NCBI GenBank assembly: GCA_002393865.1
Contig: DGUD01000177.1
Location: forward strand, 1-17,817
Source: Treponema sp. UBA4319
GTDB taxonomy: Bacteria; Spirochaetota; Spirochaetia; Treponematales; Treponemataceae
Direction of reading: 5' to 3'
Length of the DNA: 17,817 nt
A model generated the notes under the pieces. That model had not been told where the DNA came from. It was given only the letters and a program-made list of their open reading frames with translations, and made no database searches. The position numbers and the translations under genes are program-made. This document shows positions 53 to 16,262 of the stretch, piece after piece. Numbering within the stretch: position 1 is the first letter of the stretch; every line of letters begins with the position of its first letter.

Positions 53-1435
53 TTATTTGTTCACGGCATCAAGCTTTGACTGAATCTCTGCCTTCTCTGA
101 CTCGTATGCTTCCTGCGGGGTCATCCAGCCGTGGGCAATCATGTTCACCATATACTCGCCTGAGTAGTCAGGGATGATGGTGTCAAGACGCTCCGGTGCG
201 TTTGCGACCATAAGCGCGCAGGTCTCGTCGAGGGCGCGGTCATCGCGGAAGCCCTGCAGGTAAGAGACGGTCTTCCATGAGTCGGGATCGTCGTAACCGG
301 GCACATCGTCGGTGTAGAAGTCAACAATCTTCATGATTTTGTTTGCGGTCGCGTCGTCGTAGATGTTCGGGAGCGCCCACATGGTTGAATCACCGATGGT
401 GAAGTACTTGCCGTCGCTCTTCGGTCCGAGCGGGAAGCAGACCCATCCCCAGTCATCCTTCATCTGTGAGAGCGTACCGTTCGGCTGGCAGATGTATTCC
501 TGCATAACGCAGAAAGCAACCTCGCCGTTCACGAACGCGGTCTGCCAGTAGTCCCACTGGGCATCGCCCTGGGGCAGCTGGTAGTTCTGGAACATCTTGT
601 ACATCCAGTTCCACGCTTCCATAGAATTCTCGTCGCCGATGGCATCCACGAACTTGCCGTTCTGCATCTTGACCTTTGCGCCGCCGTTTGAGTAGGCTGC
701 CGCGATGCCGAAGCAGGTGTAGAATGAAGCCATAGCGTACTGGTCAATCACGCCGTCATTGTTTGTGTCCCTGGTGATTTTGCGGCACATCTCCTCAAAG
801 GTGTCCCATGTCCACTTGCCCTGCTTCTGCAGGTCGTAGGGATAGTCGGGGTCATAGCCGTTCTCCTCAAGGATTCTCTTGTTGAAGATGACGCCTTCGC
901 GCGGCTCGGTCTTGCCAGTGTTGAAGGTATAGAATGAGTTCCCTGAGCGCAGGCGATCCATGATGCCCTTGTTCCACTTTGCCTTGTTCCAGTTCACGTT
1001 CTTGATCTTTCCAAGGTCGTACCAGAAGTCGTTCTGCAGGCCGGAGATGGCTGAGCGTCCGTCGATGATGAACACAACATTGTCCTTTGTGCCGGACATG
1101 ATGAGGTTTGCCACTTCTTTCGGGTGGTCACCCCATCCTGCAAGGTCTTTCTGCACAATCTTGAAATTGTAGGTGTCCATCAGCCACTTGCGGAATGCGC
1201 GCTGATCTTCCTCACTCTTTGAGTTTGCCGGTGCGTCGGGATTCGTCCACCAGTCATAGACGGTCACTTCCATGCCGCCGAAGTCATACACCTTGCCGGT
1301 CTCCGGGTCGATTTCTGCCTGCACGCCCTGATAGCTCGGTACGTTCTGTGCGGCCTGTGCGCCTTTGTCCTTGTTGCAGGAAGCGAACATGAAGACCGTT
1401 GCAGCGGCGAGCGCTGCGATTGCGATTCTTTTCAT
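53..1435 (-). CDS. Extracellular solute-binding lipoprotein of a sugar-type ABC importer
   Basis: A 460-residue protein with a lipoprotein signal: K2-R3, a hydrophobic core and lipobox F-A-S-C with the lipidated cysteine at 20. It should sit on the outer face of the inner membrane (or on the surface) and hand a sugar or glycan to permeases. Length and sequence style fit family-1 extracellular solute-binding proteins. These include VFNKR-like IFNKR near 183, 'WTWDTFEEM' at 208-216, and an acidic DxNxDGxID loop at 223-231 resembling an EF-hand/dockerin calcium loop, common in these proteins. GAGGAG stands 7 bases before the ATG. The gene follows the eight-gene ABC operon but is separated by hairpins and has its own promoter, so it can be made in excess over the permeases, as usual for binding proteins. 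The adjacent permease pair (1750-3640) is its likeliest partner. Substrate unknown. Confidence 0.93.
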   Translation of the reverse strand: MKRIAIAALAAATVFMFASCNKDKGAQAAQNVPSYQGVQAEIDPETGKVYDFGGMEVTVYDWWTNPDAPANSKSEEDQRAFRKWLMDTYNFKIVQKDLAGWGDHPKEVANLIMSGTKDNVVFIIDGRSAISGLQNDFWYDLGKIKNVNWNKAKWNKGIMDRLRSGNSFYTFNTGKTEPREGVIFNKRILEENGYDPDYPYDLQKQGKWTWDTFEEMCRKITRDTNNDGVIDQYAMASFYTCFGIAAAYSNGGAKVKMQNGKFVDAIGDENSMEAWNWMYKMFQNYQLPQGDAQWDYWQTAFVNGEVAFCVMQEYICQPNGTLSQMKDDWGWVCFPLGPKSDGKYFTIGDSTMWALPNIYDDATANKIMKIVDFYTDDVPGYDDPDSWKTVSYLQGFRDDRALDETCALMVANAPERLDTIIPDYSGEYMVNMIAHGWMTPQEAYESEKAEIQSKLDAVNK

Positions 1436-1531: not shown

Positions 1532-1560
1532 AGTATATCATTGTTTAGGTAAATATGCAA
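1532..1560 (-). promoter_or_regulatory. Sigma-70 type promoter of the lipoprotein gene
   Basis: On the minus strand TTGCAT (1555-1560), a 17-base spacer and TATACT (1532-1537). The -10 box matches 5 of 6 consensus bases and is preceded by an A-rich tract (from 1561 on) that could act as an UP element. Predicted start of transcription is about 1525, leaving a leader of roughly 90 bases before the lipoprotein ATG. The 9-mer TTGCATATT is shared with the operon promoter at 13281-13308. Confidence 0.7.
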
Positions 1561-1618
1561 ATTTTTTTTTGCTAAAAACAAAAAATAAAGGCTAAAATTA
1601 AACTTCCCGCCAGAGCAG

Positions 1619-1749: not shown

Positions 1750-2733
1750 TCAGCCCTTCACGCCTGTGCTCGCGAGGCTCTCCACAAAGAGCCGCTGGCA
1801 GAACAGGTACAGGATAATCAGCGGCAGCACGATGAGCAGCACCGCCGACGAGTTGATGGCTCCTGCGAATGCGGGCGGAACGGAGACGTTGCCGCCGCCC
1901 TGCGCGCGGCTCATGTATACGGAAAGCTTGTCGGTAAGGCTTCCTACGGAGCGTGCCAGCAGCTGGATTTTGCCCAGGAAGAGGTTCGCGTAGAAGCTGT
2001 CCGTCCACTGCCACACAAATGAGAAGAGGAAGCAGGAGGTGATGATGGGCTTTGCGCCCGGAATCATAATCCTGAAGAACGTAGCGAACGGACCGCAGCC
2101 GTCCACGTAGCATGCTTCCTCCAGCTCAAAGGGGAAGCTTAGGAAGTACTGTCGTATCATAAAGATGTACAGACCGTTCTTGAGCCCCATGCAGGTAAAG
2201 CACATCATGAGGTAGGGGAGCATGCTGCCCTTCAGGTTGAAGGTGAAGCCCAGCAGCTTGAAGTAGCGGAAGTGCAGGTACAGCGACGTTGAGATTGTCT
2301 GCGGCGGGATGACAATCAGCAGTATGACGCAGAGGAACCAGAAGCGCTTGAGCGGGAACTGGAAGCGTGAGAAGCCGTAGCCCACGAATGTGCACATCGT
2401 CACTTCGATGACAGAAACCAGCAGCGATACCCAGATGGTGTTCAGCAGCGAGGTCTTGTAGTCAAGGATATATGAGGCAATCTTCCAGTTGCTCACGGAA
2501 AAATGCTTGGGGATTACGACTATGGTCGTGTCGTAGAGATCCTTCTCCGCCATAAAGCTCAGCGAAATCTTGTTCAGGATGGGCTGCAGAATCATAAAGC
2601 ACATGCCGAAGAGCAGTATCGCCCGGAACAGGGAGACCGCATATTTCTGGATTGTCAGGCTGAGCAGCCTTCCTCCCGATGCCTCGTTCCGTTCCCAGAA
2701 CGAAAGGCTGTTGTAATCAGTCGTATTAGTCAT
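1750..2733 (-). CDS. ABC sugar-type permease, second pair, MalG-like subunit
   Basis: A 327-residue integral membrane protein of the carbohydrate uptake (CUT1) permease type. Hydrophobic segments lie near residues 33-55, 98-120, 131-150, 170-190, 230-250 and 293-312. The cytoplasmic EAA loop that contacts the ATPase is readable at about 205-228 (EEACYVDG, then IP near 224). The MalG-like assignment rests on the C-terminal pattern ending near ESLASTGVKG, typical of this subunit. Its ATG overlaps the end of the preceding permease gene by 8 bases, so translation is probably coupled. It forms a heterodimer with that neighbour. No ATPase gene is nearby. The N-terminal tail before the first membrane segment is longer than usual. 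Confidence 0.92.
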   Translation of the reverse strand: MTNTTDYNSLSFWERNEASGGRLLSLTIQKYAVSLFRAILLFGMCFMILQPILNKISLSFMAEKDLYDTTIVVIPKHFSVSNWKIASYILDYKTSLLNTIWVSLLVSVIEVTMCTFVGYGFSRFQFPLKRFWFLCVILLIVIPPQTISTSLYLHFRYFKLLGFTFNLKGSMLPYLMMCFTCMGLKNGLYIFMIRQYFLSFPFELEEACYVDGCGPFATFFRIMIPGAKPIITSCFLFSFVWQWTDSFYANLFLGKIQLLARSVGSLTDKLSVYMSRAQGGGNVSVPPAFAGAINSSAVLLIVLPLIILYLFCQRLFVESLASTGVKG

Positions 2734-3640
2734 AGTTATACACCACCTTTGAGATTATCAGAGAGCTGATGCCGATGAGAATCATACAGACAACAAAGTA
2801 AATCCACGCCATTGCGGAGCTGAATCCGAAATTCAGCTGGATAGAAAGCTGGTCCTCTATTTTCTTCATTATCTGGCTGTCCGTGCGCATGAAGAAATCC
2901 ACGACGGTATATACCCAGCAGACCAGCATCAGGGGGCTCACCATGGGAACGGTGATTTTCCACAGGCTTTCCCATGCGGTGCAGCCTTCCATGTCCGCTG
3001 CCTCGTACACGCTCGGAGAGATGTTCTGCAGGCCGGAAAGGAAAATGATTATCTGGATGCCGGAGGCCATGGCGACATCGTAGATGGAGTCAATCACCTC
3101 GAACAGTATCTTGAACATCTTGTCGCCGGGGCCGGCCATGCCGCCCGTGTTGGAAAGCAGGATGTTCTCGATGACCGTTGTAATGGAATTCGCGTTGCCG
3201 GATTCCTCTATGGTCTCCTTGAGCTGCGCCATCATGGTGTTGTTGTATTCTAGTCCCACCAGCACGCCGGAAGAGAGGATGACCGTCAGGAAGAATATAG
3301 AGCGCACGAGGGCGCGTCCCTTGAACTTCTGGTTCAGGATGAGCGCCACGAAAAAGCTGAACACGATGGTGGCCAGCGAGTGATAAATCATCTGGGTGAT
3401 GTTTTCCACGAGCATGCGGTTGAACTCAGGGTCAATCAGGAATGCCCGCTTATAATTCTCCCATCCGCTCCGGACGGCCTGAAATCCGTTCGGTCCGACT
3501 GAGATAGTGGAGAAACTCATCATCAGAGACTGATACAGCGGCTTGAGCATGAAGAACACAAAGCCTATGATGAAGGGGAGAATGAAAACATATCCGTACA
3601 AAGCCCTTCTCTTTGTAAGACCGACTTTTCTCTTGCGCAT
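2726..3640 (-). CDS. ABC sugar-type permease, second pair, MalF-like subunit
   Basis: A 304-residue membrane permease of the CUT1 type. A basic N-terminus (MRKRK) precedes the first membrane segment at about 15-38. Further segments lie near 85-103, 112-130, 190-205, 233-250 and 277-297. The EAA loop is at about 212-236 (YEAADMEG, then VP near 231). Compared with its counterpart at 9335-10273, the external region around 130-180 differs strongly, which argues that the two pairs serve different partners and did not arise by a recent duplication. GGAGG with a 6-base spacer precedes the ATG, one base after the stop of the DUF5696 gene. With the next gene it should form the import channel; the lipoprotein encoded at 53-1435 is the probable binding partner. 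Confidence 0.92.
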   Translation of the reverse strand: MRKRKVGLTKRRALYGYVFILPFIIGFVFFMLKPLYQSLMMSFSTISVGPNGFQAVRSGWENYKRAFLIDPEFNRMLVENITQMIYHSLATIVFSFFVALILNQKFKGRALVRSIFFLTVILSSGVLVGLEYNNTMMAQLKETIEESGNANSITTVIENILLSNTGGMAGPGDKMFKILFEVIDSIYDVAMASGIQIIIFLSGLQNISPSVYEAADMEGCTAWESLWKITVPMVSPLMLVCWVYTVVDFFMRTDSQIMKKIEDQLSIQLNFGFSSAMAWIYFVVCMILIGISSLIISKVVYNYD

Positions 3641-3641
3641 A

Positions 3642-6266
3642 TTAGTCCTCCACCTTCACAACTGCGTAGTCACGGGCGGGAATATAGATTCCCGTATCCG
3701 AATGATAATCTGTATAGCCAAAGTTTACTATGACGGCATAGCCATTGTCGAAGCTTGTCGAGGTGACATCTTTTGTCTCATACTTGAAGTCCGTGATGAG
3801 TGCTCCGGCGACCTTGCCAATCTTTGTGTTGTAATCCCTGTAAACCGCAATGAATTCGTCCTTCCATGCATCGAAATTCGCGGAGTAGTACTCCGTGAAA
3901 TTCGTCTCCTGGATGGCGGTTTCGGGGGCGTTCATGAACGTAAAGTACAAGCCTGCCCCTGACTGTGCCGACTCCAGAAGCTCCTGCCGCTGCTCCGGCG
4001 CGAGGTTTATCGCTTTGCCCGCAAAATTCTTGTAGCCGTGGAGCGCAATCTGGAAGAAGGGAACCGTGTAGTCCGCGAGGGAATAGGCGTTTCCCGTCAG
4101 GTCAAGGTTGGTGATGAAATCCGCTGGCGGAAGCGCGTATGCGTTCCCGAAGTTTATCATGACGCCGAGCCCATCCTTTTTTGCGAGCTCCATCTCCTTT
4201 ACCTGCATCTTCATCGCGTCCTCGCGGTTCACGGAATGCTTTTCGTTGTAATCCGCGGAAACTATGCTGCCGAAGTCGCGGTAGGATACGCCTATGCCGT
4301 AGTTCTTTGCGGCGGCCCTCAGCTTTCCGGACGCTGCCTCGGCTACAACTGGGCGGACAAGGAAATAAGAGTCTGCCTCGTCATTCTTGCCGTACCATAT
4401 CGCCGAGTATTCGTTGAGCTCGCAGAGTTTCTGGCTTACAAAACGAGCCGGAGAGCTGTAGCGGAAGAAACCGTCCGTCCAGCCAGAATGGTAGGCGAAC
4501 TGCATGGTTCCGTCCAGGTAGAGCGTGGAACCTGAAGCCTCGGCAGCCTTTGCCAGCGAGGCAAAGTCCGATGCTCCGCCGAGTTTTCCCATGAATTTCA
4601 CCTTGTTCAGCAGCTTCTGGCGGATTCCTCCGTTGATAAAGCCGGAAAGCTTGTAGTGCACATCCTTGATGCCTTCCGCGTCGATGCTGGCCATAATGTC
4701 CTGCGCCTGCTTGTAGGTCGTGAGCGTGTAAGGGAGGTTCTTTGGGATACCCATAACCTGCTGCACCCTGTCTATCGCGCCCACTATCTCCACTGCGACA
4801 GGAACTTTGCCGCCAGCAACTTTCTGCTGGCCTTTGAAGAGGTGCTCCCGGTATGCCTTTGCCATATCGACGGGATTGGTGCTGTCCACAAAGGTGTAGA
4901 CTTGCCGGAGCGTCTGTCCTTCCGGCAGGCCTTTCTCGAACATATACTGGGCGTTTACGGTGCGCGCGCTTATATCATAGCGCTCGTTGTGCAGCATCTT
5001 GTAGTCAGCGTACGCATAATTGTAGCTGCCCAGTTTTCCTGCTATCTCGGCTTTTATGCCTGCGTACGCGGAGCCGTCCTCTATGATGGAGATAAAGGAT
5101 GATTCGCCTGATGCGATGCCGAAGACCGGGTAGGCGACCTTTGTCTCCGTGACCACGGACTTCCTGTCCTGTGCGTAATCCCAGCCGTAGACATCCGCGT
5201 AGTAGTTGTTCAGCTTTGTCTTGCCGTTGTTGAAGTTGATGATGCTTCCGCCGCCCTCAGGAATAAAGATGAATCCTTCGTCTGTCGCGTTGCCCGCGCC
5301 AAAGTAGGGGAGAAGGGCAATCTTGGTGATGGGGAACTTGAGCCTGTAGGAAATCTCGTCGAAGGGGACTTCCACCACAAGGTTCTTGCCCTCAAGCCGG
5401 TAGATGACGGTCGCGTTGAACGCCGGCACTTCCTTCTCGTTGGATTCCATATACTGTTCCTTGCTCGCGAGGTAGTCCTCATAGGTAAAGCCCGCCTCTT
5501 TGAACAGCGCCTCCACTTTCTCCTTCATGAAGTTCTGGATATTCTCAAAGACGAGGTACAGATCCTCATCCTCCAGACGGGGATATTTCCTGAGCAGCTC
5601 ATTGATGCCGTCCCCCGGAGTCGCCGTCGCAAGGCTGTAGCGATGGTACGCGCGGTTTACCGTGTTTACCTCGCTCTTGGACATATTCGCAGTCCACTTC
5701 TCAAAGTCCTCCTGGTACATCATCAGCGGGAACAGGTACTCCCTGTTCATCTGGCCGATGGTGTAGTGCACGGCGATGGAGTCCCCCTGCTTCTCGATGC
5801 TGTAGAATTTGCGGTTCACGCTGTTGGTATAGAGATCAAAGACCTCTGCGTTCCCGTTTTCCGTGGAATACTCAAGGAGCAGGCTTGAGCGCATGTTGTT
5901 CTTTTCTTTTGCCAGCGCGATGGGGTCGCTGTCAAGGTCTTTGGGGCTTGAGTACCAGGTTTTGCCCGTCGCTTTCTGCAGCAGCGTGAACTGGGTGCTG
6001 ACCGGGTCAAGCTCAAAGCGCAGGTCGGAGGATTCCAGTACCAGCGGTTTCCCCGACATTTTCTCGTCATATTCGTAGAAATCGAATTCCGGCTGGCGGT
6101 ATGAGCCAACGTTGACGAGCCTGATGACGATATACGTGATGAATAGTGCCGCCGCAAGAAAAATTCCGAGCCAGATATAGAAGCCCACGGTTGGCCGGGG
6201 AATTCCAGCAAACAGAGATTGTTTTGCGGAGCCTGTTGTGTTTGTCGTGTTCATGTCCTTTTCCAT
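3642..6266 (-). CDS. Membrane-anchored DUF5696-type protein, glycoside-hydrolase-like
   Basis: An 874-residue protein with one N-terminal membrane helix (about 29-50) and a large outside part. I recognise the DUF5696 family, for which I know no proven activity. Visible landmarks are a beta-rich region ending in LPYFGAG (319-325) and PEGGGSIINFNNGKT (336-350), then SFISIIEDGSA (390-400). After these comes a barrel-like half with FINGG (543-547), LDGT (584-587), SYRDFGS (661-667) and IALHGY (740-745). The overall plan, a beta-sandwich followed by an apparent TIM barrel, resembles GH101/GH66-like hydrolases; D585 and D664 are candidate catalytic acids, which is inference. Within the operon it could trim or hold a glycan before import. 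ATG chosen has GGGGA 7 bases upstream; M5 is the alternative start. No signal-peptidase or lipobox site is seen, so it stays tethered. Confidence 0.85.
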   Translation of the reverse strand: MEKDMNTTNTTGSAKQSLFAGIPRPTVGFYIWLGIFLAAALFITYIVIRLVNVGSYRQPEFDFYEYDEKMSGKPLVLESSDLRFELDPVSTQFTLLQKATGKTWYSSPKDLDSDPIALAKEKNNMRSSLLLEYSTENGNAEVFDLYTNSVNRKFYSIEKQGDSIAVHYTIGQMNREYLFPLMMYQEDFEKWTANMSKSEVNTVNRAYHRYSLATATPGDGINELLRKYPRLEDEDLYLVFENIQNFMKEKVEALFKEAGFTYEDYLASKEQYMESNEKEVPAFNATVIYRLEGKNLVVEVPFDEISYRLKFPITKIALLPYFGAGNATDEGFIFIPEGGGSIINFNNGKTKLNNYYADVYGWDYAQDRKSVVTETKVAYPVFGIASGESSFISIIEDGSAYAGIKAEIAGKLGSYNYAYADYKMLHNERYDISARTVNAQYMFEKGLPEGQTLRQVYTFVDSTNPVDMAKAYREHLFKGQQKVAGGKVPVAVEIVGAIDRVQQVMGIPKNLPYTLTTYKQAQDIMASIDAEGIKDVHYKLSGFINGGIRQKLLNKVKFMGKLGGASDFASLAKAAEASGSTLYLDGTMQFAYHSGWTDGFFRYSSPARFVSQKLCELNEYSAIWYGKNDEADSYFLVRPVVAEAASGKLRAAAKNYGIGVSYRDFGSIVSADYNEKHSVNREDAMKMQVKEMELAKKDGLGVMINFGNAYALPPADFITNLDLTGNAYSLADYTVPFFQIALHGYKNFAGKAINLAPEQRQELLESAQSGAGLYFTFMNAPETAIQETNFTEYYSANFDAWKDEFIAVYRDYNTKIGKVAGALITDFKYETKDVTSTSFDNGYAVIVNFGYTDYHSDTGIYIPARDYAVVKVED

Positions 6267-6279
6267 TTTCTGATCCCCG

Positions 6280-6957
6280 TCAATTTAACCTGAAGAACAC
6301 TTCCCGTCCGAGGGAAATGAAGTATCCTATTCCCTGCGATATAAGGCTGAAGAACAGGAGCATGATGAAGAGGAATACCAGCATCCCGAACACCGTGAAT
6401 ACCGTGAACAGGAGCGTCTTCCCGAAGCTGTAGGCGTGGATCATCATCATTGCCATGATAAAGAGAATCCCGCACCAGATGAGGGATATGTTGTTGAACA
6501 CCCAGTAGAACGTCCCCTCTTCTTTGGTCACAAAGTTGCTGAGGATGATGATGGGAATCTGGATGAGCGGATACGGGGTCAGCGCGTACGCGGAGCCCAT
6601 GTATACGTCGCCGAGGTGACCTTTGCCGTCAAAGAGCGTCGTGACGCCCCAGTTGCAGAGAACAAAGACCACGAGCGGCAGCAGGATTGTCGCTATTTCC
6701 ATAAAGATATTGACCTGCTCCCAGTTCACGTCTATGAACAGGAAACTGGTGAACTGCAATTTCCAGACATGCGTGAGCAGCGTGAGAATCACGATAAAAT
6801 TGGCGGCGGCATAGGAGCCTCGCTTTGCGTGAATCAAATCCCAGAAGCCGTCCGCCGGGTGCCATATAACATAGAGCGAGTAGCGGAGCGTCTGGAGAAA
6901 GTGGGTATACGTCTCTTTCTGCGTTAGTTTTGCAAGTTTCTTGGTCATGTAGTTCAT
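6280..6957 (-). CDS. YIP1-family five-helix membrane protein
   Basis: A 225-residue very hydrophobic protein. A cytoplasmic N-terminus carries the pattern HPADGFWDLIHAKRG (33-47), typical of bacterial YIP1-family proteins encoded beside sugar ABC transporters. Membrane segments lie near 48-65, 86-105, 124-143, 155-175 and 182-207. Between helices 2 and 3 is WGVTTLFDGKGHLGDV (103-118), also a family hallmark. In eukaryotes Yip1 proteins act in vesicle traffic; the role of the bacterial ones is not known to me. The start ATG overlaps the stop of the propeller gene (ATGA) with GGAG 5 bases upstream, so translation is coupled. Its place between the propeller and the DUF5696 genes suggests it scaffolds or helps assemble the surface complex; this is inference. 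Confidence 0.85.
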   Translation of the reverse strand: MNYMTKKLAKLTQKETYTHFLQTLRYSLYVIWHPADGFWDLIHAKRGSYAAANFIVILTLLTHVWKLQFTSFLFIDVNWEQVNIFMEIATILLPLVVFVLCNWGVTTLFDGKGHLGDVYMGSAYALTPYPLIQIPIIILSNFVTKEEGTFYWVFNNISLIWCGILFIMAMMMIHAYSFGKTLLFTVFTVFGMLVFLFIMLLFFSLISQGIGYFISLGREVFFRLN

Positions 6958-8420
6958 AAAGACTCCAGCTCCCTCTTAAAAGATTTGATTCCCCTTACGA
7001 TGAAAGGAATAAAGACTATCGCGCAGAGCACGGCAAGCACCCAGCCAAGGTTCTTCTCGATCCATTCCTTGCGGTAGTACATGAACGCCTTTGAGTAGTA
7101 TCGCTTGAAGCGCTTTACCCTAAAGTAGTCCATCGCCTCTTTGTACTGGTTCTGGCGCAGGCGGGCTTTTCCCAGACCTGCGTAGGCAAGGTCGTAGTTG
7201 CCGTTCAGCCGCATCACCTTATCCCACTCCGCGGCGGACAAATCGTATTCGCCTTCCGCATAGAGCTCCGTCGCGTTATAGATGTAGTCCCCGAACTGCG
7301 TCGGAGAGAACAGCGTGATGGTGCAGCTGGCCTGATCGAGGACAAAGAGATCCCTGCCGCAGTGCTCTATGGAAACCGGCATGCGGAAGAAACCGTCTAT
7401 GTTGCCCGGATTTCCGAATGCGAACAGCAGCTCGCCCTGATTGTCATAGGCAAAGAGCCTGCCGCGGCTTTCGTCGAGCGCGATATATACCTCGTTGTCC
7501 AGCACGGTGATGTCGTTGAAATGGGACGGATTCTCCTGCCCTGCGGCAGTGCCCCACTGCAAGTCGCCCACCGGCGGATCCCAGTTCTTGATAAGGATGT
7601 CCCCGCCGAGCGCGTTCAGCCGCCGGATGGGTTTTGCCTGGTCGTTCAGCAGCTCCTGCGGCTTGAAGGTCTTGAGGACGGCATAGATGAAGCCGTCTTT
7701 GTCAAGGTAGGCATTTGAGTATTCCGTGGGGACAAAGGATTCCATCTGCTCGCGCTGTGCCCTCGTGGATAATTTCTTCCACAGGTAGTCGGTCCAGTCG
7801 TAGGTAACGTCGCTTGCACCGTAGAAGCCGGTGAAGGTGCCGTTGTCCTCGTACTTGATGAAGCCCTTGTTCACGTTTTTTGCAAGGACATACGCCCTTC
7901 CTTTTGAGTCTGCGACCACTTTTTCCGGAAGGAATGTCTTTCCTTCCTCGTAGGTGGGGTCGTTCGGCTCCGTAAAGGAAAGCATGTAGTTCAGATTCGC
8001 GTCGATGCGTACGACGCGCCCGTTGTTCGTGTCCGCGACAAAGAAGGAGCCGTCTTCGCCCACATAGACGTCTGAAGGAGACGCAAAGGTGCTGACGATT
8101 CCCGCCGGGGCAGTGAACTGATCGATGGAGCGGACAAAGGAGAGGCTCTTGTCCTGCCCGTAGCTGAATTCGAGAATCCTGTTGTTGCCTGAGTCCACCA
8201 GATAGAGCGTGTTCCCCCGGCAGAACAGGGAGCTGGGGTTCACGAATTCTGTTCCTATGCCCAAATCCTTTGCGTAGAACACGTCGGCGACCCTGTAGAC
8301 ATCCGGCGAATGCTCTATGTTCTGCCAGACATCGTAAATGTAGGTGTCGCCTTTCGCGAAGAGCTGCGTTCCGAGAGCCGTGAGCGCGGCGATTGTTATA
8401 ATCAGTTTCCGTCGTATCAT
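6954..8420 (-). CDS. Secreted beta-propeller (NHL-like) protein with TPR-like segment and C-terminal membrane helix
   Basis: A 488-residue protein. A cleavable-looking signal peptide (2-22, cut near LFA-K) exports it. Repeated blades follow, with NHL signatures: LYLVDSGNNRILEF (72-85), FFVADTNNGRVVRID (126-140), FIYAVL (244-249), VYIALDESRGRLFAYD (311-326) and DLFVLDQ (357-363). Residues about 383-440 are helical and TPR-like (LYAEGEYDLSAAEWDKV, then AYAGLGKARLRQNQYKEAM). A single membrane helix lies at about 459-477, with a short basic cytoplasmic tail (RGIKSFKREL). The protein is therefore anchored with its propeller outside. Propellers of this class bind ligands or partner proteins; some are lactonases, but no catalytic residues can be assigned here. 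AAGGA stands 7 bases before the ATG, which is 4 bases after the permease stop. A scaffold or sensor role for the transporter is inference. Confidence 0.85.
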   Translation of the reverse strand: MIRRKLIITIAALTALGTQLFAKGDTYIYDVWQNIEHSPDVYRVADVFYAKDLGIGTEFVNPSSLFCRGNTLYLVDSGNNRILEFSYGQDKSLSFVRSIDQFTAPAGIVSTFASPSDVYVGEDGSFFVADTNNGRVVRIDANLNYMLSFTEPNDPTYEEGKTFLPEKVVADSKGRAYVLAKNVNKGFIKYEDNGTFTGFYGASDVTYDWTDYLWKKLSTRAQREQMESFVPTEYSNAYLDKDGFIYAVLKTFKPQELLNDQAKPIRRLNALGGDILIKNWDPPVGDLQWGTAAGQENPSHFNDITVLDNEVYIALDESRGRLFAYDNQGELLFAFGNPGNIDGFFRMPVSIEHCGRDLFVLDQASCTITLFSPTQFGDYIYNATELYAEGEYDLSAAEWDKVMRLNGNYDLAYAGLGKARLRQNQYKEAMDYFRVKRFKRYYSKAFMYYRKEWIEKNLGWVLAVLCAIVFIPFIVRGIKSFKRELESL

Positions 8421-8424
8421 TTCA

Positions 8425-9318
8425 CTAGTCCTTTAAGCCCGATGTTGCCATCGTTTCCAGAATCTGGCTCTGGGAGCAGATAAAGAAGATAATCGGCACG
8501 GACATGGACACCACGACGACAGCCTGTGCCTGTCCGGTGCGCGCGATGCCGCCTGCCATAATCTGATCCATCGCATAACGGAGCATTTTTTTGCTCTCGG
8601 TGTATATGTAGGTGGTCTGCGGGTTGTTCCACAGCGCCGTGATGGAGAAAATCGAGATGGTGAGCCATGCGGGTTTTACGTTCGGCATAACGAGCTTCCA
8701 AAAAATAAGGAATTCGTGGGCGCCGTCGATTTTTGCCGCCTCTATGAGCGACATGGGAAAACCGTCCATGAACTGCTTCATCAGGAAGAGTCCCAGCGAG
8801 CCGCCGATTGCCGGCAGTATGAGCGACCAGTAGGTATCGACCATGTGCAGGCGGCACATAATCAGGTAGTTCGGGATGCCCGTTACGTAGCCGCTGAACA
8901 TGAGCGCTACGACCGCAAGCTTGAAGAACGCCTTTCCGCCGGGAAAGTCATACTTTGCGAGGACGTATGCCGCCATCGAGGCGATGATGACATGGCCTAT
9001 CGTTCCCACCGCCGTCACGAACAGCGTGTTGAAGATATAGCGGGAGAACGGAACCCATGACTGGGTAAGCGTAATGAACAGGTCTGAGTAGTTCCTGAAC
9101 GTGGGGTTGCGCGGCCAGAAAGTCGGCGGCTGCTTGAGCAGCTCTCCGAGAGGCTTGAGCGAGCTTGATATCGCGAACACTATCGGGAACACCATCACTA
9201 TGGAGCAGAGCGAAAGGAATATGTAGATTCCGATGTCTCCGCCGATGGAGCGGATTGGTCCCCTCCGGTACTTTGAATGGCGCACGGTCGTTTTTGTCTG
9301 GTATTTTGACTGTCTCAT
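8425..9318 (-). CDS. ABC sugar-type permease, first pair, MalG-like subunit
   Basis: A 297-residue CUT1-type permease. Membrane segments lie near 27-52, 97-120, 130-150, 160-180, 216-232 and 264-283. The EAA loop, readable at 193-212 (EAAKIDGA, then MP), is close to the consensus EAA-DG-LP pattern used to dock the ATPase. The C-terminus ILETMATSGLKD matches the usual MalG-like ending. A long basic N-terminal tail (about 22 residues with many K/R) precedes the first helix. GAGGA stands 7 bases before the ATG; the gap to the previous permease gene is 16 bases. It pairs with the product of 9335-10273 and should be fed by the membrane-anchored binding protein at the head of the operon. Confidence 0.94.
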   Translation of the reverse strand: MRQSKYQTKTTVRHSKYRRGPIRSIGGDIGIYIFLSLCSIVMVFPIVFAISSSLKPLGELLKQPPTFWPRNPTFRNYSDLFITLTQSWVPFSRYIFNTLFVTAVGTIGHVIIASMAAYVLAKYDFPGGKAFFKLAVVALMFSGYVTGIPNYLIMCRLHMVDTYWSLILPAIGGSLGLFLMKQFMDGFPMSLIEAAKIDGAHEFLIFWKLVMPNVKPAWLTISIFSITALWNNPQTTYIYTESKKMLRYAMDQIMAGGIARTGQAQAVVVVSMSVPIIFFICSQSQILETMATSGLKD

Positions 9319-9334
9319 TTCTGCGTCCTCCTGC

Positions 9335-10273
9335 TCAGTGTCCGACCCTGTTCAGCATTGCCTGGATTATCTTATTGCAGATAATCATCGCAAGGAACAG
9401 CGTGGTTGCGATTGCGGACGCGTAGCCCATCTCAAAGCGGGTAAAGCCGTAGTCAAAGAGGTGCGTCACGACGGTACGGGCGCAGTACTCCGTTGAGGGG
9501 TAGCCTGCGAGCGCCATCGGGATGTCGCAGACATTGAAGGCGTTTGTAATCGACATGACCGCTCCAAAGAGCAGCATCGGCTTCATGTTCGGCAGCGTGA
9601 TGAACCACAGCTCCTGCCAGCGGTTCTGGATACCGTCGATGTAGCCGGCCTCGTACTGGGATTTGTCGAGTCCCTTCAGACCTGCGACGAAGGCGAGGAA
9701 GCCCGTTCCCAGCGACATCCACAGACAGACCGGGATGATGACCTTCATGGCATAGCGCGGGTCTGACAGGAAGAGTATCGGCTGGTCGAGGAATCCGACC
9801 TTGATGAGCCATGAGTTTGCCCAGCCGTAGCGGTCATCGCTGAAGAGATTCTTGAATACGAGGTAGGCCTGTGCCGAGATTGACGGCGTGTAGAAGAAAA
9901 GGACGATGATTGTCCGTATCCAGCGGGGCAGCTCGTTGATGAGCCACGCAAAGATGAATGCGAGGATGTAGCCCACCGGTCCCACGATAAGGGCGGTGAG
10001 GAACGTGTTCTTTACCGCAATCTGGAAAACCTCGTCCTGCAGGAAGAGATTTATGTAGTTTCTGAAGCCGATGAATTCCGGTTTCTCCAGAATATTGAAA
10101 TTCGTAAAGCTGTAATATATAGAATTTATAATCGGCAGCACGTTGAACGTGATGAACAGCACCGCATACGGCAGCAGGAAAAGGTAGCAGAATTTATGCA
10201 CCTTTGCGCTCCTTACCGTGTCGGAAAGCTCTAGCCGTTTTTTCCTGAAATATTTTGTCCACATGTTGTTCAT
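9335..10273 (-). CDS. ABC sugar-type permease, first pair, MalF-like subunit
   Basis: A 312-residue CUT1-type permease. Membrane segments lie near 28-52, 88-112, 119-139, 178-197, 232-248 and 284-304. PYAVLFITFNVLPIINSIYYSF (about 35-56) is the typical first helix of MalF-like subunits. The EAA loop is at 208-231 (EAGYIDG, then LP at 227-228). AGGAG overlaps the stop of the 995-residue gene and sits 7 bases before the ATG; M4 is the only close alternative start. The ten-base gap to that gene supports strict co-expression of binder and channel. No ATPase is encoded in the window, so a shared MsmX/UgpC-like subunit from elsewhere is expected. Confidence 0.94.
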   Translation of the reverse strand: MNNMWTKYFRKKRLELSDTVRSAKVHKFCYLFLLPYAVLFITFNVLPIINSIYYSFTNFNILEKPEFIGFRNYINLFLQDEVFQIAVKNTFLTALIVGPVGYILAFIFAWLINELPRWIRTIIVLFFYTPSISAQAYLVFKNLFSDDRYGWANSWLIKVGFLDQPILFLSDPRYAMKVIIPVCLWMSLGTGFLAFVAGLKGLDKSQYEAGYIDGIQNRWQELWFITLPNMKPMLLFGAVMSITNAFNVCDIPMALAGYPSTEYCARTVVTHLFDYGFTRFEMGYASAIATTLFLAMIICNKIIQAMLNRVGH

Positions 10274-10283
10274 AGTTTGGCTC

Positions 10284-13271
10284 CTAGTCTGTCGGGAGAT
10301 TGAATTCCTGGCGTTTCCTGGTTATCTCCTCGTTGACCTTCCGTGTATAGTCTATCAAGGTCTCGCGGGGATCCTCCTTCTCGTTGAAAACGCGTCTGAT
10401 TCCGTTCACCACGTAGCGCGGAGTGTAATAGCTGCCCGGAATCTCTGGAAGCCCGATTGCTTCGTCCAGCGATTTGCTGAGGATGGTAATCTGGCGGGTG
10501 TTCCATGAGAGCTGCTTGAGCGCCTCCACGTTCGCCGTCGCATAGCGGCCGGAGGAACCGAGGATTGCCTCCTGCTCGCGCCCGAAGCGGACCTGCGTGT
10601 CTGTAGAGACCCACCACTTCATGAATTCCCATGCGTCGTGCATGCGGGACTCGTTCTTGCGTACCGCGTCCATGGTCTTTGCGTCGAATTTTGATTCTCC
10701 GCCCGCAGCCTGAACGTCGTCCATATCCAGCCCCTTGCGTATCATCATCGTACAGACGGTACCGGCGATGTTCGAGCGGTCTATGCTGCCGTCCTCCCGC
10801 ATGGTGCCGGGAAGGTAGGTAAAGTCCCACAGACCCCTGATTTCCGGCGCGGAGACTGAAAGCGTATTGTAGGCCGTGTAGTTCTGGATGCCGAGCGGCA
10901 TCTCGCCCGTGCGGAAGCGGCTGACGAAATCGAATATGGTCGGCAGACCGTAGCTGTTGTAGAAGCTCGTGTACAGCTTGAATGAGCTGATGCCTTCCTC
11001 GCTGTCTATGACGGACTTGGTGCCCGCGGGGTTGTACACGGTGCCGCCCCGCTGGTAAATCATGGAATAGAAATTCGTTATGTCGGATTCTGCCGTTGCC
11101 AGCGTGGGGTAGGGAATGCCAACTGACAGGTTGTTGCCTTGCAATGTCGGCAGAATCTCGACGAGGTCGTCCCATGTCTGGGGAACAGAGACGCCCAGCT
11201 GCTCAAGGATATCCTTGCGGTAGAAGAGCAGGTTGAACGTCTCCTGCTCCGGCAGCGCGTATACTCCGCCGTCGTATTTATAGCCTTCGTACGCGCTCGG
11301 ATGGAAATTCTTGAGCACCTCGTCGCAGTCCGCAAAGCGCTTCAGGTTGACGACCGCGTTGCGGAGCGCGTAGTCCACCGGCGCCCGCGAATAGGCTGAG
11401 ATGACGATATCCGGCCCGTTGCCCGCGACGACGGCGTTGAGCAGCGAGTTGATATTGATGAGCTTTACGTTCACGTTTATGCCGGAAGCGGGGCTGAAGC
11501 TGTCGTCCACCATGTTCTTGAGAATCTGGCTCTGGTCGCGGCCCGTCACAATCCACACCTCAATCAGGTGCTCGGCGTCCTTGTCATATACGTTGCCGAG
11601 GCTCGCGGAGTCCACGAAGAACGACGAGCTGAATGCGGCGATTTCGTGGGCCGCGTTCCTGAAGAAGCCCGCTTTGACCGGATTTACCGGGTCGTTCGCG
11701 CTCTGAAGGAGAATGTAGTCCACGTCCAGCTTGGATTCGGATATGGAGAGGAGCGAGGTTCCCAAAGAGGTGATGTTCTCTTTGAAATTCGCAAAAGCCT
11801 TGGTAATCCTGTCCGGGTGCTTGTAGAACTGCTCCAGCTGGATGGCAAGGGTTTCGGCGGGGGCAATCTTGTCTGATTTTTCCCCGGTGATAGCGATGAA
11901 TTTGTCAACGTAATAATACAGCCGGCGGCTTTCCTGCAGCATTGCCTCCACCTGCTCCGGATAGACCTTGTCGATGGAGTAGTCGCGGAACTGGTCGGGA
12001 TTCACGCCCGTCAGCACAAGGATGGTGCGGTAGATGACGTTCAGGCGGAAGATGCTGTCCTGCAGGGAGCTGACGATGGAGCCGAGCTCGCCGAGCGTAA
12101 CCTCCAGGCGGATTGCATGCGTGCCTTTGGTCAGAAAGAAGGAGTAGGGCTGCCCTTCCTTGTCCGCGAGCGTCACGAGCTTCCAGTCGGAGCTGTATGC
12201 GAAGCCTACTGATTTAAGTTCTTCTACAGGAATCTCGCCGTCGATGTAGACGGAGCGGTATGCCACGTAGCCGCGCTGGTAGAGCTGGCGGGCTTTTATG
12301 GAAAGCGTGTACCAGCCGTCCTCAGGTACCTCCATGTTCCATTCAATCCATTGCCCGGGGGTGCGCCAGGAGTCCCCGCCGGAATAGTTGAGCACTGTCC
12401 GCGAGACGCTGTTCGGCTCGGTACTTGCGGAAGAGCGGTCATAGCGGGCAAAAAGAGACGGATCGGAGCGGATGACAGAGTCCTCACCCTGCACTTTGAC
12501 GGCGACGCCGCTGCCGCTGTAGTCTTCCCGCCGCTGTTTCTGCCGGGCGGCATACTGTTCGTATGTATCGTATTTTGCGACCGGAACGAGGCGGAGGCTG
12601 CTTATCGCCATCGGCTCGTTCGTCGATTCCAGCGTGATGGTATTCGTTCCTTTGTGGAAATAGAACTTGTACGGATCCACCTCGTAGCCCATGTTGCTCT
12701 TGAAGCGGACGGTCTGATAGCTGAAATCCTCCACCTGTGTCGGCCTGATGCTGTTGCCGCGGTTATCCTCGCGGACCGGGCCGCCGTCTTTCCAGAGGCG
12801 GAAGAAGGACATGTCGGAGCCACCGAAGGGAACTTCCCCGTTGATGTACAGGATGCGCTCCATGTTCACGTTCCGGGACGGAACGGCGATGTATTCCATT
12901 TCTATATTGTAGAAACCCGGCTGATCCACTTCGACTTGCCATGTGGCGGATGATTCGTCCGCAGTGATGACGACTGCCTTGCCGTGATAGCTGCTCTCCG
13001 CAGAGACGCCATGGCTCTGCTCCTGGTCGTAATCCTGCACGGCGATGCCGACAGTTACCGCCGGCGATGCAGCCCCCTCATGCTCCTGAAGGTATTCTGC
13101 ATAGGTCTTTGAAGAGGATGCAGCCCCCACAGTGCTGGACAAGTCATAGCCTTCGTATTTTTCCTTGAAAGTCTTTTCCGGTACGAGCCGGGATACGGCA
13201 AAGAGGAGCACGAGCACCCCTATGACAATCAGGATATTGCGGAAGGTTCTGTTTATTTTTATTCCTACCAT
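10284..13271 (-). CDS. Membrane-anchored carbohydrate-binding / extracellular solute-binding fusion protein
   Basis: A 995-residue protein, about twice the length of ordinary binding proteins. It has a basic N-terminus and one membrane helix (about 12-29) without a lipobox, so it is anchored by a transmembrane segment. Outside it shows two beta-rich domains that look like carbohydrate-binding (CBM6/35 or galactose-binding-like) modules. The first is at about 76-230 (GFYNIEMEYIAVP, LYINGEVPF, FYFHKGTNTITLE). The second is at about 256-415 (GWYTLSIKARQL, VYIDGEIPVEE, FFLTKGTHAIRLE). A helical linker (about 430-550) leads to a family-1 solute-binding domain (about 569-985: NGPDIVISAYSRAPVDY, YALPEQETFNLLFYRKDIL, WEFMKWWVS). 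The parallel phrases in the two beta domains suggest internal duplication. It begins the operon and directly precedes the first permease pair. No Shine-Dalgarno is seen before the ATG, which lies 9 bases after the -10 box. Substrate unknown, a poly- or oligosaccharide being likely. Confidence 0.9.
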   Translation of the reverse strand: MVGIKINRTFRNILIVIGVLVLLFAVSRLVPEKTFKEKYEGYDLSSTVGAASSSKTYAEYLQEHEGAASPAVTVGIAVQDYDQEQSHGVSAESSYHGKAVVITADESSATWQVEVDQPGFYNIEMEYIAVPSRNVNMERILYINGEVPFGGSDMSFFRLWKDGGPVREDNRGNSIRPTQVEDFSYQTVRFKSNMGYEVDPYKFYFHKGTNTITLESTNEPMAISSLRLVPVAKYDTYEQYAARQKQRREDYSGSGVAVKVQGEDSVIRSDPSLFARYDRSSASTEPNSVSRTVLNYSGGDSWRTPGQWIEWNMEVPEDGWYTLSIKARQLYQRGYVAYRSVYIDGEIPVEELKSVGFAYSSDWKLVTLADKEGQPYSFFLTKGTHAIRLEVTLGELGSIVSSLQDSIFRLNVIYRTILVLTGVNPDQFRDYSIDKVYPEQVEAMLQESRRLYYYVDKFIAITGEKSDKIAPAETLAIQLEQFYKHPDRITKAFANFKENITSLGTSLLSISESKLDVDYILLQSANDPVNPVKAGFFRNAAHEIAAFSSSFFVDSASLGNVYDKDAEHLIEVWIVTGRDQSQILKNMVDDSFSPASGINVNVKLININSLLNAVVAGNGPDIVISAYSRAPVDYALRNAVVNLKRFADCDEVLKNFHPSAYEGYKYDGGVYALPEQETFNLLFYRKDILEQLGVSVPQTWDDLVEILPTLQGNNLSVGIPYPTLATAESDITNFYSMIYQRGGTVYNPAGTKSVIDSEEGISSFKLYTSFYNSYGLPTIFDFVSRFRTGEMPLGIQNYTAYNTLSVSAPEIRGLWDFTYLPGTMREDGSIDRSNIAGTVCTMMIRKGLDMDDVQAAGGESKFDAKTMDAVRKNESRMHDAWEFMKWWVSTDTQVRFGREQEAILGSSGRYATANVEALKQLSWNTRQITILSKSLDEAIGLPEIPGSYYTPRYVVNGIRRVFNEKEDPRETLIDYTRKVNEEITRKRQEFNLPTD

Positions 13272-13463: not shown

Positions 13464-16262
13464 TCATGCCTGCCGGATGCAGATGCTGCTCCCGGCGTTC
13501 GTCTTGCTGACCGCTATGTGGCTGGGAATCGCGCTTGCGAGCGACTCCACGTGCGATATGATGCCGACCATGCGCTGCTCCCGTACCTCGTTCAGTATGG
13601 AGATGGCGCCGTCCAGCGTCTCGCCGTCCAGCGATCCGAAGCCCTCGTCGATGAAGAGGGAGTCGAGCCTGATGCCACCGCTTTTCTGCTGCACGACGTC
13701 GGTGAGGGCAAGCGCGAGGCTGAGGGATGCCATGAAGGTCTCGCCCCCGCTCAGGCTTGCGGTGCTCCGTTCCCGGCCGGTGTAGCTGTCGCTGACGGTG
13801 ATGTCAAGCCCCTTGTAGCCTTTGCCGCCTTCCTTCTCCGTGCGGAGTATGAAGCTGTAGCGGCCCGCGGATACCTTGCGGAAACGGAGGTTCGCGGCGT
13901 TGACGACTTCTTCCAGATAGGTGCCGAGCACCCAGGAATCGAGCTGTATTTTCTTGGGGTTGCTGCCGTTGATGTCGGCGGACAGCGCGATGAGCGGGCC
14001 GTATTCCTTTTCCTTTGCGGCGAGCTTCCCGCTGTCCTCGCTGAGGCGCTGCAGCCGTTCCTGCAGCGTCGCCTGCTCTCCGGCAAGCTGTTCCCTGCGC
14101 GCGACAAGGAGTTCGTTCTGCTGCTGCATCGCCGTGAGCTCCTGCCCGGTTTTCTCCTGTTCCGCGGCAAGCTCCTCCTGTTCCGCGGCATCCGCCCGGT
14201 GCACGTTGAGCTGCGCCTCCACGGTGCGCATCGCCTCCTGCCAGCTTTCGCATGCCGCCGAGAGCCGCGCCGTCTCCTCGGCGGGGATGATGGCGTTGCG
14301 CGCCTCCTCCTCGCTGCCGAAGCTGGAGCCGGCGATTGCCCGTGCGCAGCGTTCCTCTGCTGCGGCACGTTCGTTTTGCAGCGCGCCGAGCTGGGCGGAC
14401 AGCGATTTCTCCTCGCCCTGAAGGCTGCTGCACTGCCGCCCGGATTCCTCCACTGCTTTTGCGAATCGCTCTATGCTGTTCCGGAGCGCCGCTTTCTGCT
14501 GCGCGAGCTCCTGCCTGCGCCTGTGCAGTGCCTCTGTGCCGGAGGAGTCCGCCGTGCCGCCGCATTCCGCTACGGCTTTCGCAAGTGCCGCGGTCGCCTC
14601 GCTGACCGCCGTCTGCTGCCCGGCAATGCGGTTCGGGGTCGGGGTAGGCTCCGTGCGGAGGGGCAGCTCCGCTGCCGCGGGGAGTGTCAGCTGTGCCCGC
14701 GCGGCGGCGTCCAGCAGCTGCCCTGTCATGAGGGCGATGAGCCTGCCGGCCTCCTGCAGCTGGGATTCGCGCCGCGAGAGCTGTTCGCTCTGCTGCCGGA
14801 GCGCGCTGGCTGCGGCCTCGTCAGCCGCTATGCGCTCGTCAAAGTCGATACCGGTGTGCAGGAATGCGGCCGGGGAGGGGTGCGTGGTGGAGCCGCAGAC
14901 GGGGCAGGGGCTGCCTTCCGCGAGCAGCGACGCCAGCGATGCCGCCGCATTGCTGTCTTTTTCGTGCTGCTGCTGCGCGCGGAGCTCCTGGATTTCATCA
15001 TCAAGCTTGAGGAGCAGCCCTTTGCCGCGCTCCTTTTCTGCCGTACAGTCTGCCAGTTCTTGCGCCGCTTTGATGCCTGCGGGTGCTGTCTTGATGTAGA
15101 GCGCTTCGATGCGCTCTGCCGCCTTCTTGCGCTCAAGCTGCGCCCGCTCTTTTGCCGCTGCCTGCGCGAGCTGCGCCTCCACGTCGTGCAGGGCGATGCC
15201 GCATTCCTCAAGCTGGCGCTGCTGCTCGCCCTGCTGTGCTTCCTGCCCGGCAAGCCGGAGTCGCTGTGCCTGCGCGGAGGAGAGCTGCTCCCTCGCAGCT
15301 GCCAGGCGGCTCTGTGCCTGCGCCAGCCGCTGCCCTGCCGCCTCTTTGCCGCGTATGGCCTCGCCGAGCAGGGCTGCTTCCTGCGCGCGCCGGATCCGCG
15401 CCTGCAAGGTGGCGATGTCTGCCCGCTGTGCCTCCAGCGAGGCCTTCCTCTCCTGCAGTGCGGCTGCCGCCCGCGCGTCCTCCAGCCGGGAGGCAAGCTC
15501 GTTCTTTTTGCCGCTCAGCTCCCTGATGCGCTCTGAGCATGCCGCGCAGGCGCCCTGGAGCTCGCCGAGCTCCCCGCTGATTTCCTGCAGCCGCTGCGCC
15601 GCGGCATCCCTGTCAAAGGCCTCAAGGTCTGCCGCGAGCATGCCGCGCAGTGTGTCCAGCTCCCGCTGCGCTGCGTCGGCGTCGCTCCTTGCCTGCTGGC
15701 AGACGGAGGAGTAGAATTCGACGGGGAAGAGCTTTGCGAGCGTGTTTTTTCTGTTCCGGGGATCTTCATGCAGGAATTCCGCGAATTCCCCCTGCGGAAG
15801 GAGCACTATCTGCGAGAATTCGTCCTTGCTCAGCCCGATGAGCTCCTGGATTTTCTCGTTCAGCTCGGACAGCTTGCCTTCCCGCGGCTCCCACGGCTCT
15901 GTCCCCCCGTTCCGGCCGTAGAGCTCCAGCGTCTGGGGCTTCCGGGCTTTTTTGCCGGTCTTTGTGGTGTAGCTGCGCTCCACGGTGCGGATTATCCGGT
16001 ACTGCCGTGCGTTCAGCAGGAAGATGAATTCCACGGAGCCCTCCGCGTCTTCCGCGGCGTAGTCGCTGTGGAGGCGGACGTCCTTTCTGCTGCGGTAGCC
16101 CGCCGTCTCGCCGTAGAGCGCGTAGGTCATCGCGTCGAAGATGGTCGTCTTGCCGCTGCCTGTCCTGCCGGTGACGAGGAACATGTCCTGCAGCGCAGCG
16201 AAGTCGATTTCTTCCTGCACGAAGGGACCGATGTTGCTGAGCCTGAGGAAAAGAGGTTTCAT
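13464..16262 (-). CDS. sbcC: Exonuclease SbcC (Rad50-like ATPase subunit)
   Basis: A 932-residue SMC-like ATPase that, with SbcD, opens and cuts hairpin or protein-blocked DNA ends. The N-terminal half-ATPase holds Walker A GRTGSGKT (32-39) and the Q-loop glutamine at 157 (LLPQGEF). A long Ala/Glu/Gln/Arg-rich coiled coil follows, broken by the zinc hook CPVC (453-456), close to the middle as the family demands. The C-terminal half-ATPase shows the ABC signature LSGGE (837-841), Walker B ending in D872-E873 (FIDEGFGSLD), and the switch histidine in IISHVESL. I chose the ATG at 16260-16262 because it overlaps the sbcD stop as ATGA and starts the family-typical KPLFLRLSNIGPF; the reading frame stays open upstream only as a shadow inside sbcD. 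Length is slightly below that of E. coli SbcC (just over 1,000 residues). The coding region is more GC-rich than the ABC operon. Confidence 0.97.
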   Translation of the reverse strand: MKPLFLRLSNIGPFVQEEIDFAALQDMFLVTGRTGSGKTTIFDAMTYALYGETAGYRSRKDVRLHSDYAAEDAEGSVEFIFLLNARQYRIIRTVERSYTTKTGKKARKPQTLELYGRNGGTEPWEPREGKLSELNEKIQELIGLSKDEFSQIVLLPQGEFAEFLHEDPRNRKNTLAKLFPVEFYSSVCQQARSDADAAQRELDTLRGMLAADLEAFDRDAAAQRLQEISGELGELQGACAACSERIRELSGKKNELASRLEDARAAAALQERKASLEAQRADIATLQARIRRAQEAALLGEAIRGKEAAGQRLAQAQSRLAAAREQLSSAQAQRLRLAGQEAQQGEQQRQLEECGIALHDVEAQLAQAAAKERAQLERKKAAERIEALYIKTAPAGIKAAQELADCTAEKERGKGLLLKLDDEIQELRAQQQHEKDSNAAASLASLLAEGSPCPVCGSTTHPSPAAFLHTGIDFDERIAADEAAASALRQQSEQLSRRESQLQEAGRLIALMTGQLLDAAARAQLTLPAAAELPLRTEPTPTPNRIAGQQTAVSEATAALAKAVAECGGTADSSGTEALHRRRQELAQQKAALRNSIERFAKAVEESGRQCSSLQGEEKSLSAQLGALQNERAAAEERCARAIAGSSFGSEEEARNAIIPAEETARLSAACESWQEAMRTVEAQLNVHRADAAEQEELAAEQEKTGQELTAMQQQNELLVARREQLAGEQATLQERLQRLSEDSGKLAAKEKEYGPLIALSADINGSNPKKIQLDSWVLGTYLEEVVNAANLRFRKVSAGRYSFILRTEKEGGKGYKGLDITVSDSYTGRERSTASLSGGETFMASLSLALALTDVVQQKSGGIRLDSLFIDEGFGSLDGETLDGAISILNEVREQRMVGIISHVESLASAIPSHIAVSKTNAGSSICIRQA

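What the first reader, a model, noticed from the sequence alone, without database searches (positions are those of the whole stretch)
1750..13271. Compact eight-gene surface operon: two ABC permease pairs plus propeller, YIP1 and DUF5696 proteins, without an ATPase
Gaps of 1-16 bases and ATGA or 8-base overlaps tie all eight genes into one unit. The permeases and solute-binding domain are established family assignments. The propeller/TPR, YIP1 and DUF5696 members have no defined role that I know of, yet all three are placed between the two permease pairs and all three are membrane-bound with (for two of them) large outside parts. I infer a multi-protein glycan capture and processing complex at the cell surface, possibly with two import channels working on related products. 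The idea that it could export or sense a polysaccharide rather than import one should stay open.
Basis: partly seen in the sequence, partly recalled or inferred. Interest (0 to 1): 0.8.

Follow-up and report, generated by a model that had tools for sequence, protein, structure and literature searches.

The report
Conserved two-importer hemicellulose uptake module
Eight neighbouring genes in a Treponema-like spirochaete encode an uptake machine with two sugar importers and three poorly understood surface proteins, and the same genes in the same order recur in distant gut and soil bacteria, often next to enzymes that digest plant hemicellulose, so it is probably a widespread, undescribed way to take in plant-fibre fragments.

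The parts
10284..13271 (-). SBPfus, 995 aa: N-terminal membrane helix (res. 8-29), two beta-sandwich modules (about 74-229 and 257-392), helical region (396-552), maltose-binding-protein-like SBP (564-995)
9335..10273 (-). Permease A1 (CUT1 MalF/UgpA type)
   Evidence: BPD_transp_1 5.1e-13; EAA loop
8425..9318 (-). Permease A2 (CUT1 MalG/UgpE type)
   Evidence: BPD_transp_1 6e-9; UgpE-like, below its cut-off; EAA loop
6954..8420 (-). NHL propeller + TPR-like segment + C-terminal membrane helix (457-475)
   Evidence: NHL 1.5e-10, TPR_11 8.8e-4 (below its cut-off); hydropathy
6280..6957 (-). YIP1 membrane protein; overlaps the NHL gene by ATGA; fused to NHL in some relatives
   Evidence: Yip1 1.9e-9; fusions
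3642..6266 (-). DUF5696, 874 aa: N-terminal membrane helix, beta-sandwich, TIM barrel, C-terminal beta domain (GH129/DagB-like)
   Evidence: PF18952 1.4e-169; model pLDDT 91.5; PDB matches
2726..3640 (-). Permease B1
   Evidence: BPD_transp_1 4.7e-6; EAA loop
1750..2733 (-). Permease B2, overlaps B1 by 8 bases
   Evidence: BPD_transp_1 6.3e-9; EAA loop
1704..1740 (-). Terminator-like hairpin, GUUUU tail, after permease B2
   Evidence: fold, sequence; not listed by the consensus scan
53..1435 (-). SBP2, 460-aa solute-binding protein with N-terminal signal-like segment, constant partner of the module, possibly with its own promoter
   Evidence: no Pfam or NCBIfam match at 1e-3; matches a gene annotated as extracellular solute-binding protein in L011 at 5e-26; profile hit in 75 of 79 loci with a complete module
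1532..1561 (-). Promoter-like site (TTTGCA-18-TATACT) ahead of SBP2
   Evidence: consensus match only

Best explanation
A two-channel CUT1 ABC importer for hemicellulose-derived, probably xylan-derived, oligosaccharides. The membrane-anchored SBP fusion holds polymer or long oligosaccharides with its CBM-like modules and delivers to permeases A1/A2; SBP2 most likely feeds B1/B2. A UgpC/MsmX-type ATPase encoded elsewhere in the genome drives both pairs. NHL and YIP1 form a membrane-bound unit that, with DUF5696 (a GH129/DagB-fold protein facing outside), holds or trims the incoming glycan beside the channels; final breakdown is in the cytoplasm. Shown: gene set, order, conservation, predicted folds, EAA loops, hemicellulase neighbours in relatives, genome-level link with GH10, NHL-YIP1 fusions. 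Inferred: which SBP pairs with which permeases, the ATPase, the physical complex, the role of DUF5696, the exact sugar.
For: 79 complete loci of 91, 78 in the same order, SBP2 in 75 of 79; the 12 incomplete loci all break off at a locus end. 12 of 12 strong DUF5696 carriers among 296 Spirochaetota genomes have the module. In 72,556 plasmid records, the only NHL and SBPfus matches covering 80% or more of the query, and all DUF5696 matches, fall in the same two records, both with the whole module. NHL-YIP1 fusion in 7 of 91 loci plus L156. Neighbour clusters: GH26+CBM35 in 31 loci, CBM65 in 26, GH130 in 12, GH10 in 10, GH43+GH43_C2 in 7. Hydrophobic N-terminus in 21 of 26 GH26 and 5 of 6 GH5, in 0 of 13 GH130, 0 of 3 GH36, 0 of 3 GH3: the pattern of surface cutting followed by oligosaccharide import. 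Six-protein tree of 78 loci: window inside a 22-locus clade (support 1.0) with 10 xylan-labelled, 2 mannan-labelled, 10 unlabelled; 3 label changes against a shuffled minimum of 8 in 2000. GH10 in 11 of 12 module genomes against 32 of 284 others; within the genus 8 of 8 against 7 of 21, p 0.0015. Unlinked UgpC-type ATPase gene, 52% identity.
Against: No hemicellulase, regulator or importer ATPase gene was recognised in the window. Substrate labels come from relatives; 29 of the 78 tree loci have no label, and the nine-locus clade around the window has only 2 labelled members. A second xylan-labelled group (L030, L031, L038) sits nearer the mannan clade, so labels are not one-to-one with clades. 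L018, in the 22-locus clade, carries GH130 and GH5; L090 carries GH36. The own genome also has a GH26, and the matching GH26 co-occurrence control did not complete. GH10 may only mark plant-fibre degraders in general; the Fisher tests ignore ancestry. One module genome (G302) lacks GH10. The nearest solved SBPs bind beta-1,2-glucan or maltodextrins, not xylan. A second ATPase gene is nearly as close (49%). No interaction or expression data.
Confidence: 0.7

Rival explanations
1. Two ordinary CUT1 importers and three accessory proteins share an operon only for co-regulation; there is no common complex, and DUF5696 is a free-standing surface glycosidase.
For: Both permease pairs have EAA loops and there are two SBPs, so each pair could work alone. 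L079 shows the two halves can change order. No interaction data.
Against: Co-regulation alone would not be expected to keep eight genes in one order in 78 of 79 complete loci from at least two phyla. NHL-YIP1 fusions point to contact. No strong DUF5696 carrier with enough sequence lacked the rest.
Confidence: 0.2
2. The NHL-YIP1-DUF5696 trio is a glycan sensor that reports extracellular hemicellulose, with the permeases as regulated partners.
For: Large outside domains joined to membrane parts; DUF5696 may lack a GH129-type catalytic Glu and its candidate Asp is absent in 13 of 79 sequences, as a binder could tolerate.
Against: No signalling domain was recognised by Pfam in the three. Many relatives carry separate regulators: AraC in 20 loci, LacI in 21, a histidine kinase in 4.
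Confidence: 0.1
3. The system exports or recycles a cell-surface polysaccharide of the bacterium itself.
For: The Spirochaetota loci examined have few hemicellulase genes beside them; the YIP1 family is named for membrane trafficking (recalled).
Against: SBPs and CUT1 permeases with EAA loops are import hardware. Many Bacillota relatives sit beside mannan and xylan degradation genes. None of the 20 recurrent neighbour families scanned was a polysaccharide synthesis gene.
Confidence: 0.05

Closest known systems
CUT1 carbohydrate ABC importers (maltose, UgpAE, LplBC types) with a shared MsmX/UgpC-type ATPase (shared-ATPase idea recalled)
   Same: SBP plus two permeases with EAA loops; ATPase encoded elsewhere, best UgpC-type candidate 52% identical
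   Different: Two permease pairs and two SBP types together; one SBP fused to CBM-like modules and tethered; NHL, YIP1 and DUF5696 partners in every complete locus examined
GH129 and the DagB 3,6-anhydro-D-galactosidase group (5wzr, 5opq)
   Same: DUF5696 has the same three-domain build, beta-sandwich + TIM barrel + C-terminal beta domain (DagB domains from passages of PMC5698469)
   Different: Membrane-tethered, transporter-linked, 11-17% identity, no PF11308 match in 20 members tested, Glu at the aligned GH129 Glu position rare
Gram-positive PULs of Roseburia and Eubacterium rectale (PMC5320581, passages read)
   Same: Many Bacillota relatives combine transporter, endo-hydrolase, trimming enzymes and regulator
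   Different: The passages read mention ABC transporter systems without such partners; the term NHL occurs 0 times in that main text
Lin1841 beta-1,2-glucooligosaccharide-binding protein (5ysb)
   Different: Aligned only over residues 568-991; substrate probably differs

Membership tests
CUT1 ABC importer | Two membrane subunits with EAA coupling loop per channel | tested here: met
   BPD_transp_1 in all four; EAA loop visible in all four window permeases and those of the 15 other loci displayed. A strict pattern scored PermA1 82/82, A2 81/84, B1 44/88, B2 85/85; the B1 misses among the displayed loci read EV instead of EA
CUT1 ABC importer | Carbohydrate solute-binding protein | tested here: met
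   SBP_bac_1/8 and MBP-like fold in SBPfus. SBP2 has no Pfam hit; it rests on homology to annotated SBPs
CUT1 ABC importer | Cognate ATP-binding subunit | tested here: inconclusive
   None found in the window; UgpC-type genes elsewhere; pairing not testable here
GH129 glycosidase | Three-domain fold of NagBb/DagB | tested here: met
GH129 glycosidase | Sequence match to the GH129 Pfam model PF11308 | tested here: not met
   0 of 20 DUF5696 proteins list PF11308 at E up to 1, although a DUF5696 profile finds 5opq at 1.1e-10 (three short stretches, best 0.0012) and NagBb at 7.6e-6
GH129 glycosidase | Catalytic Asp nucleophile (Asp435 NagBb / Asp486 DagB) | tested here: inconclusive
   Candidate D664 is Asp in 66 of 79; its mapping rests on the alignment to one weak GH129 relative (L114); in the alignment to L113 it falls in a gap
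GH129 glycosidase | Second catalytic acid | tested here: inconclusive
   A Glu of both L113 and L114 aligns with N705; columns 704-707 hold Glu in 4 of 79. That this Glu is their catalytic acid is inferred; DagB also lacks NagBb's second residue (PMC5698469)
Gram-positive PUL | Transporter genes beside CAZyme genes and a regulator | tested here: not met
   None recognised in this window; met in many Bacillota relatives

The most novel reading that the evidence does not exclude
A new class of glycan importer: two CUT1 permease pairs bridged by an NHL-YIP1 membrane hub and a non-classical or inactive GH129-fold protein that guides long, decorated hemicellulose oligosaccharides from a CBM-bearing, tethered binding protein into two coupled channels, working as one machine in Spirochaetota and Bacillota.
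Probability: 0.3. Interest if true: 0.9.

Novelty: new variant of a known kind. Interest (0 to 1): 0.72.

Why it matters
Gram-positive gut bacteria and spirochaetes have no SusCD-type uptake machine like that of Bacteroides (recalled; a passage of PMC5320581, says so for one E. rectale strain). A module with a near-fixed gene order in both phyla, often beside mannan and xylan degradation genes, is a good candidate for a dedicated hemicellulose uptake machine. It gives a likely fold to a family of unknown function (DUF5696), a context to a bacterial YIP1 family, and makes the role of all three accessory proteins directly testable.

Tried and rejected
Papers: DUF5696 occurs in 0 papers of the held library; searches combining Yip1, NHL, DUF624, permease, SBP, xylan and mannan terms listed nothing on the module (listings only, except passages of PMC8106489, PMC5698469, PMC10958521, PMC6344614, PMC5320581, PMC4230839 and PMC13278490). 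Only open-licence papers are held and supplements could not be read. PMC6344614 reports SBPs and permeases among the most upregulated genes of a Butyrivibrio on xylan, and PMC4230839 a GH26 (Cphy1071) among six genes upregulated on several substrates; whether either is this module I cannot tell.

Rejected: export system; SBP2 as an unrelated downstream gene; DUF5696 as a family without known fold. Weak Pfam hits of DUF5696 members other than PF18952 (one member each, E 0.02-0.73) are noise. Two marginal DUF5696 matches (G098, G197; 27.3 and 26.1 bits) showed none of the other module genes in the stretches fetched and are probably not family members. Twelve more genomes of that draw match below the cut-off and were not looked at; 2 of 14 control genomes also match, 0 over the cut-off.

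Limits: one search kept the best 80 of 466 confirmed stretches, ranked by likeness to a Butyrivibrio protein; the other 386 were not looked at. Profiles used for the survey were built from hits in these same loci. Complete loci include L019, whose permease B2 is cut by a contig end. Substrate labels are mine, from sequence clusters of which only a representative was scanned with Pfam; three recurrent clusters were not scanned. The secretion judgement is a crude hydropathy cut. The N-terminal half of SBPfus was not folded or searched alone. I had no coordinates to superpose, so catalytic positions come from sequence profiles. The GH10 two-by-two counts were tallied by hand from the tables, all GH10 matches at E 0.001 counted (43; 40 over the cut-off), and genomes with DUF5696 matches under 100 bits counted as without the module.
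Full report
What is there. The window lies in an unnamed 2.76-Mb draft genome. Close protein relatives are named Treponema sp.; T. bryantii is named at 55% identity, and genome G262 of the same genus has a contig of exactly that record's length, so the genus is very probably Treponema in the wide sense. A terminator-like hairpin follows permease B2, though the consensus scan did not list it; then come a promoter-like site and SBP2. SbcD and SbcC lie upstream, with no visible functional link.

Conservation. Among genus- and order-level relatives, 8 of 38 genomes besides the own one have DUF5696 over the cut-off, and all 8 fetched regions hold the unit in the same order, L019 cut by its contig end inside permease B2. 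A Butyrivibrio fibrisolvens plasmid (pNP243) and a Paenibacillus cellulosilyticus plasmid have it too. A scan of the named genome collection gave 466 stretches that encode a relative, of which the best 80 were kept. Profile searches on 91 loci (window + 90): 79 complete, 78 in identical order. L079 has the NHL/YIP1-DUF5696-B1-B2 block ahead of SBPfus-A1-A2. In each of the 12 incomplete loci the genes run to, or within about 150 bases of, the end of the held sequence on the side where genes are missing. NHL and YIP1 are one gene in L012, L020, L037, L050, L052, L079 and L087 and in L156. As a less biased check, 296 Spirochaetota genomes drawn evenly gave 14 over the cut-off: 12 strong (own one included), all with the module, and 2 marginal at 26-27 bits, without it in the stretches fetched; one of the 12 (L155) shows no SBP2. 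The converse test in plasmids: NHL and SBPfus matches over at least 80% of the query, and all DUF5696 matches, fall only in the two module plasmids; weaker partial matches to NHL or SBP parts occur elsewhere (1 further record for NHL, 268 for SBPfus).

Substrate. Recurrent neighbours in the 91 loci, by cluster: GH26 with CBM35 (31 loci), DUF624 (28), CBM65 (26), LacI (21), AraC (20), GH130 (12), GDSL (11), GH10 (10), GH5 (8), GH43 with GH43_C2 (7), GH36 (4), another GH43 (4), GH3 (3). Counting only genes whose start is held, a hydrophobic N-terminus is seen in GH26 21 of 26, CBM65 18 of 26, GH5 5 of 6, GH10 6 of 10, second GH43 2 of 4, GDSL 2 of 11, GH43 with GH43_C2 1 of 7, GH130 0 of 13, GH36 0 of 3, GH3 0 of 3. 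Of 78 loci in a tree of six concatenated proteins, 32 carry mannan-type labels, 13 xylan-type, 4 the other GH43 and 29 none. Mannan and xylan labels need 3 changes against a shuffled minimum of 8 and mean of 11.5. The window lies within the clade rich in AraC, GH10, GH43 and GH3; a second xylan-labelled group of three Bacillales loci lies nearer the mannan clade. In Spirochaetota, GH10 occurs in 11 of 12 module genomes against 32 of 284 others (p 2e-9, no ancestry correction) and, within the genus, in 8 of 8 against 7 of 21 (p 0.0015). The own genome has 3 GH10 matches, 8 GH43 matches and 1 GH26 match. Xylan-derived oligosaccharides are therefore the first guess for this copy and mannan-derived ones for the GH26-linked clade; the GH26 control could not be run.

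How it most likely works (inferred). Surface endo-enzymes release decorated oligosaccharides; the CBM-bearing SBPfus and SBP2 capture them; two CUT1 channels import them on one shared ATPase; cytoplasmic enzymes finish. The NHL-YIP1 unit and DUF5696 sit at the membrane between the channels. Because NHL's C-terminal helix leads into YIP1 in natural fusions, I infer that the propeller stands outside on a YIP1 base. Whether DUF5696 trims side chains, in keeping with its alpha-glycosidase-like fold, or only binds is open.

Novelty. Individual parts are known kinds; the near-fixed assembly is, as far as the searches show, undescribed in open-licence papers. I file it as a new variant of a known kind (a CUT1 glycan importer) and not as a GH129 member.

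Noticed in passing
L156 (G291:C20:25683-27584): The DUF5696 match in this Spirochaetota genome comes as two pieces with overlapping profile ranges, which suggests an insertion or an assembly quirk.
   Followed up: no
L079: Only complete locus with rearranged order: NHL/YIP1 fusion-DUF5696-B1-B2 precede SBPfus-A1-A2, so the two blocks can change places but stay adjacent.
   Followed up: partly
L012 17958-27181: In Paenibacillus cellulosilyticus the module is followed by several LLM-class flavin oxidoreductases and further SBPs, an unusual setting for a sugar transporter.
   Followed up: no
L013, L014, L015, L016, L019: Same-genus copies share other neighbours (PspC in five, HAAS in four, an argininosuccinate-lyase-like gene in four), none of them seen in the window.
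   Followed up: no
L095 1693-2394 and 27 other loci: A DUF624 membrane protein recurs beside the module in 28 loci and may be a tenth partner.
   Followed up: partly
L012, L015, L052: Two SBP2-like genes beside one module, suggesting swappable substrate specificity.
   Followed up: no
L113, L114: GH129-type proteins (PF11308) are rare in Spirochaetota, 2 of 198 genomes; L113 stands beside what looks by eye like an aminotransferase gene.
   Followed up: partly
window 13464-17473: SbcD and SbcC genes upstream overlap by a few bases; ordinary DNA repair pair.
   Followed up: no
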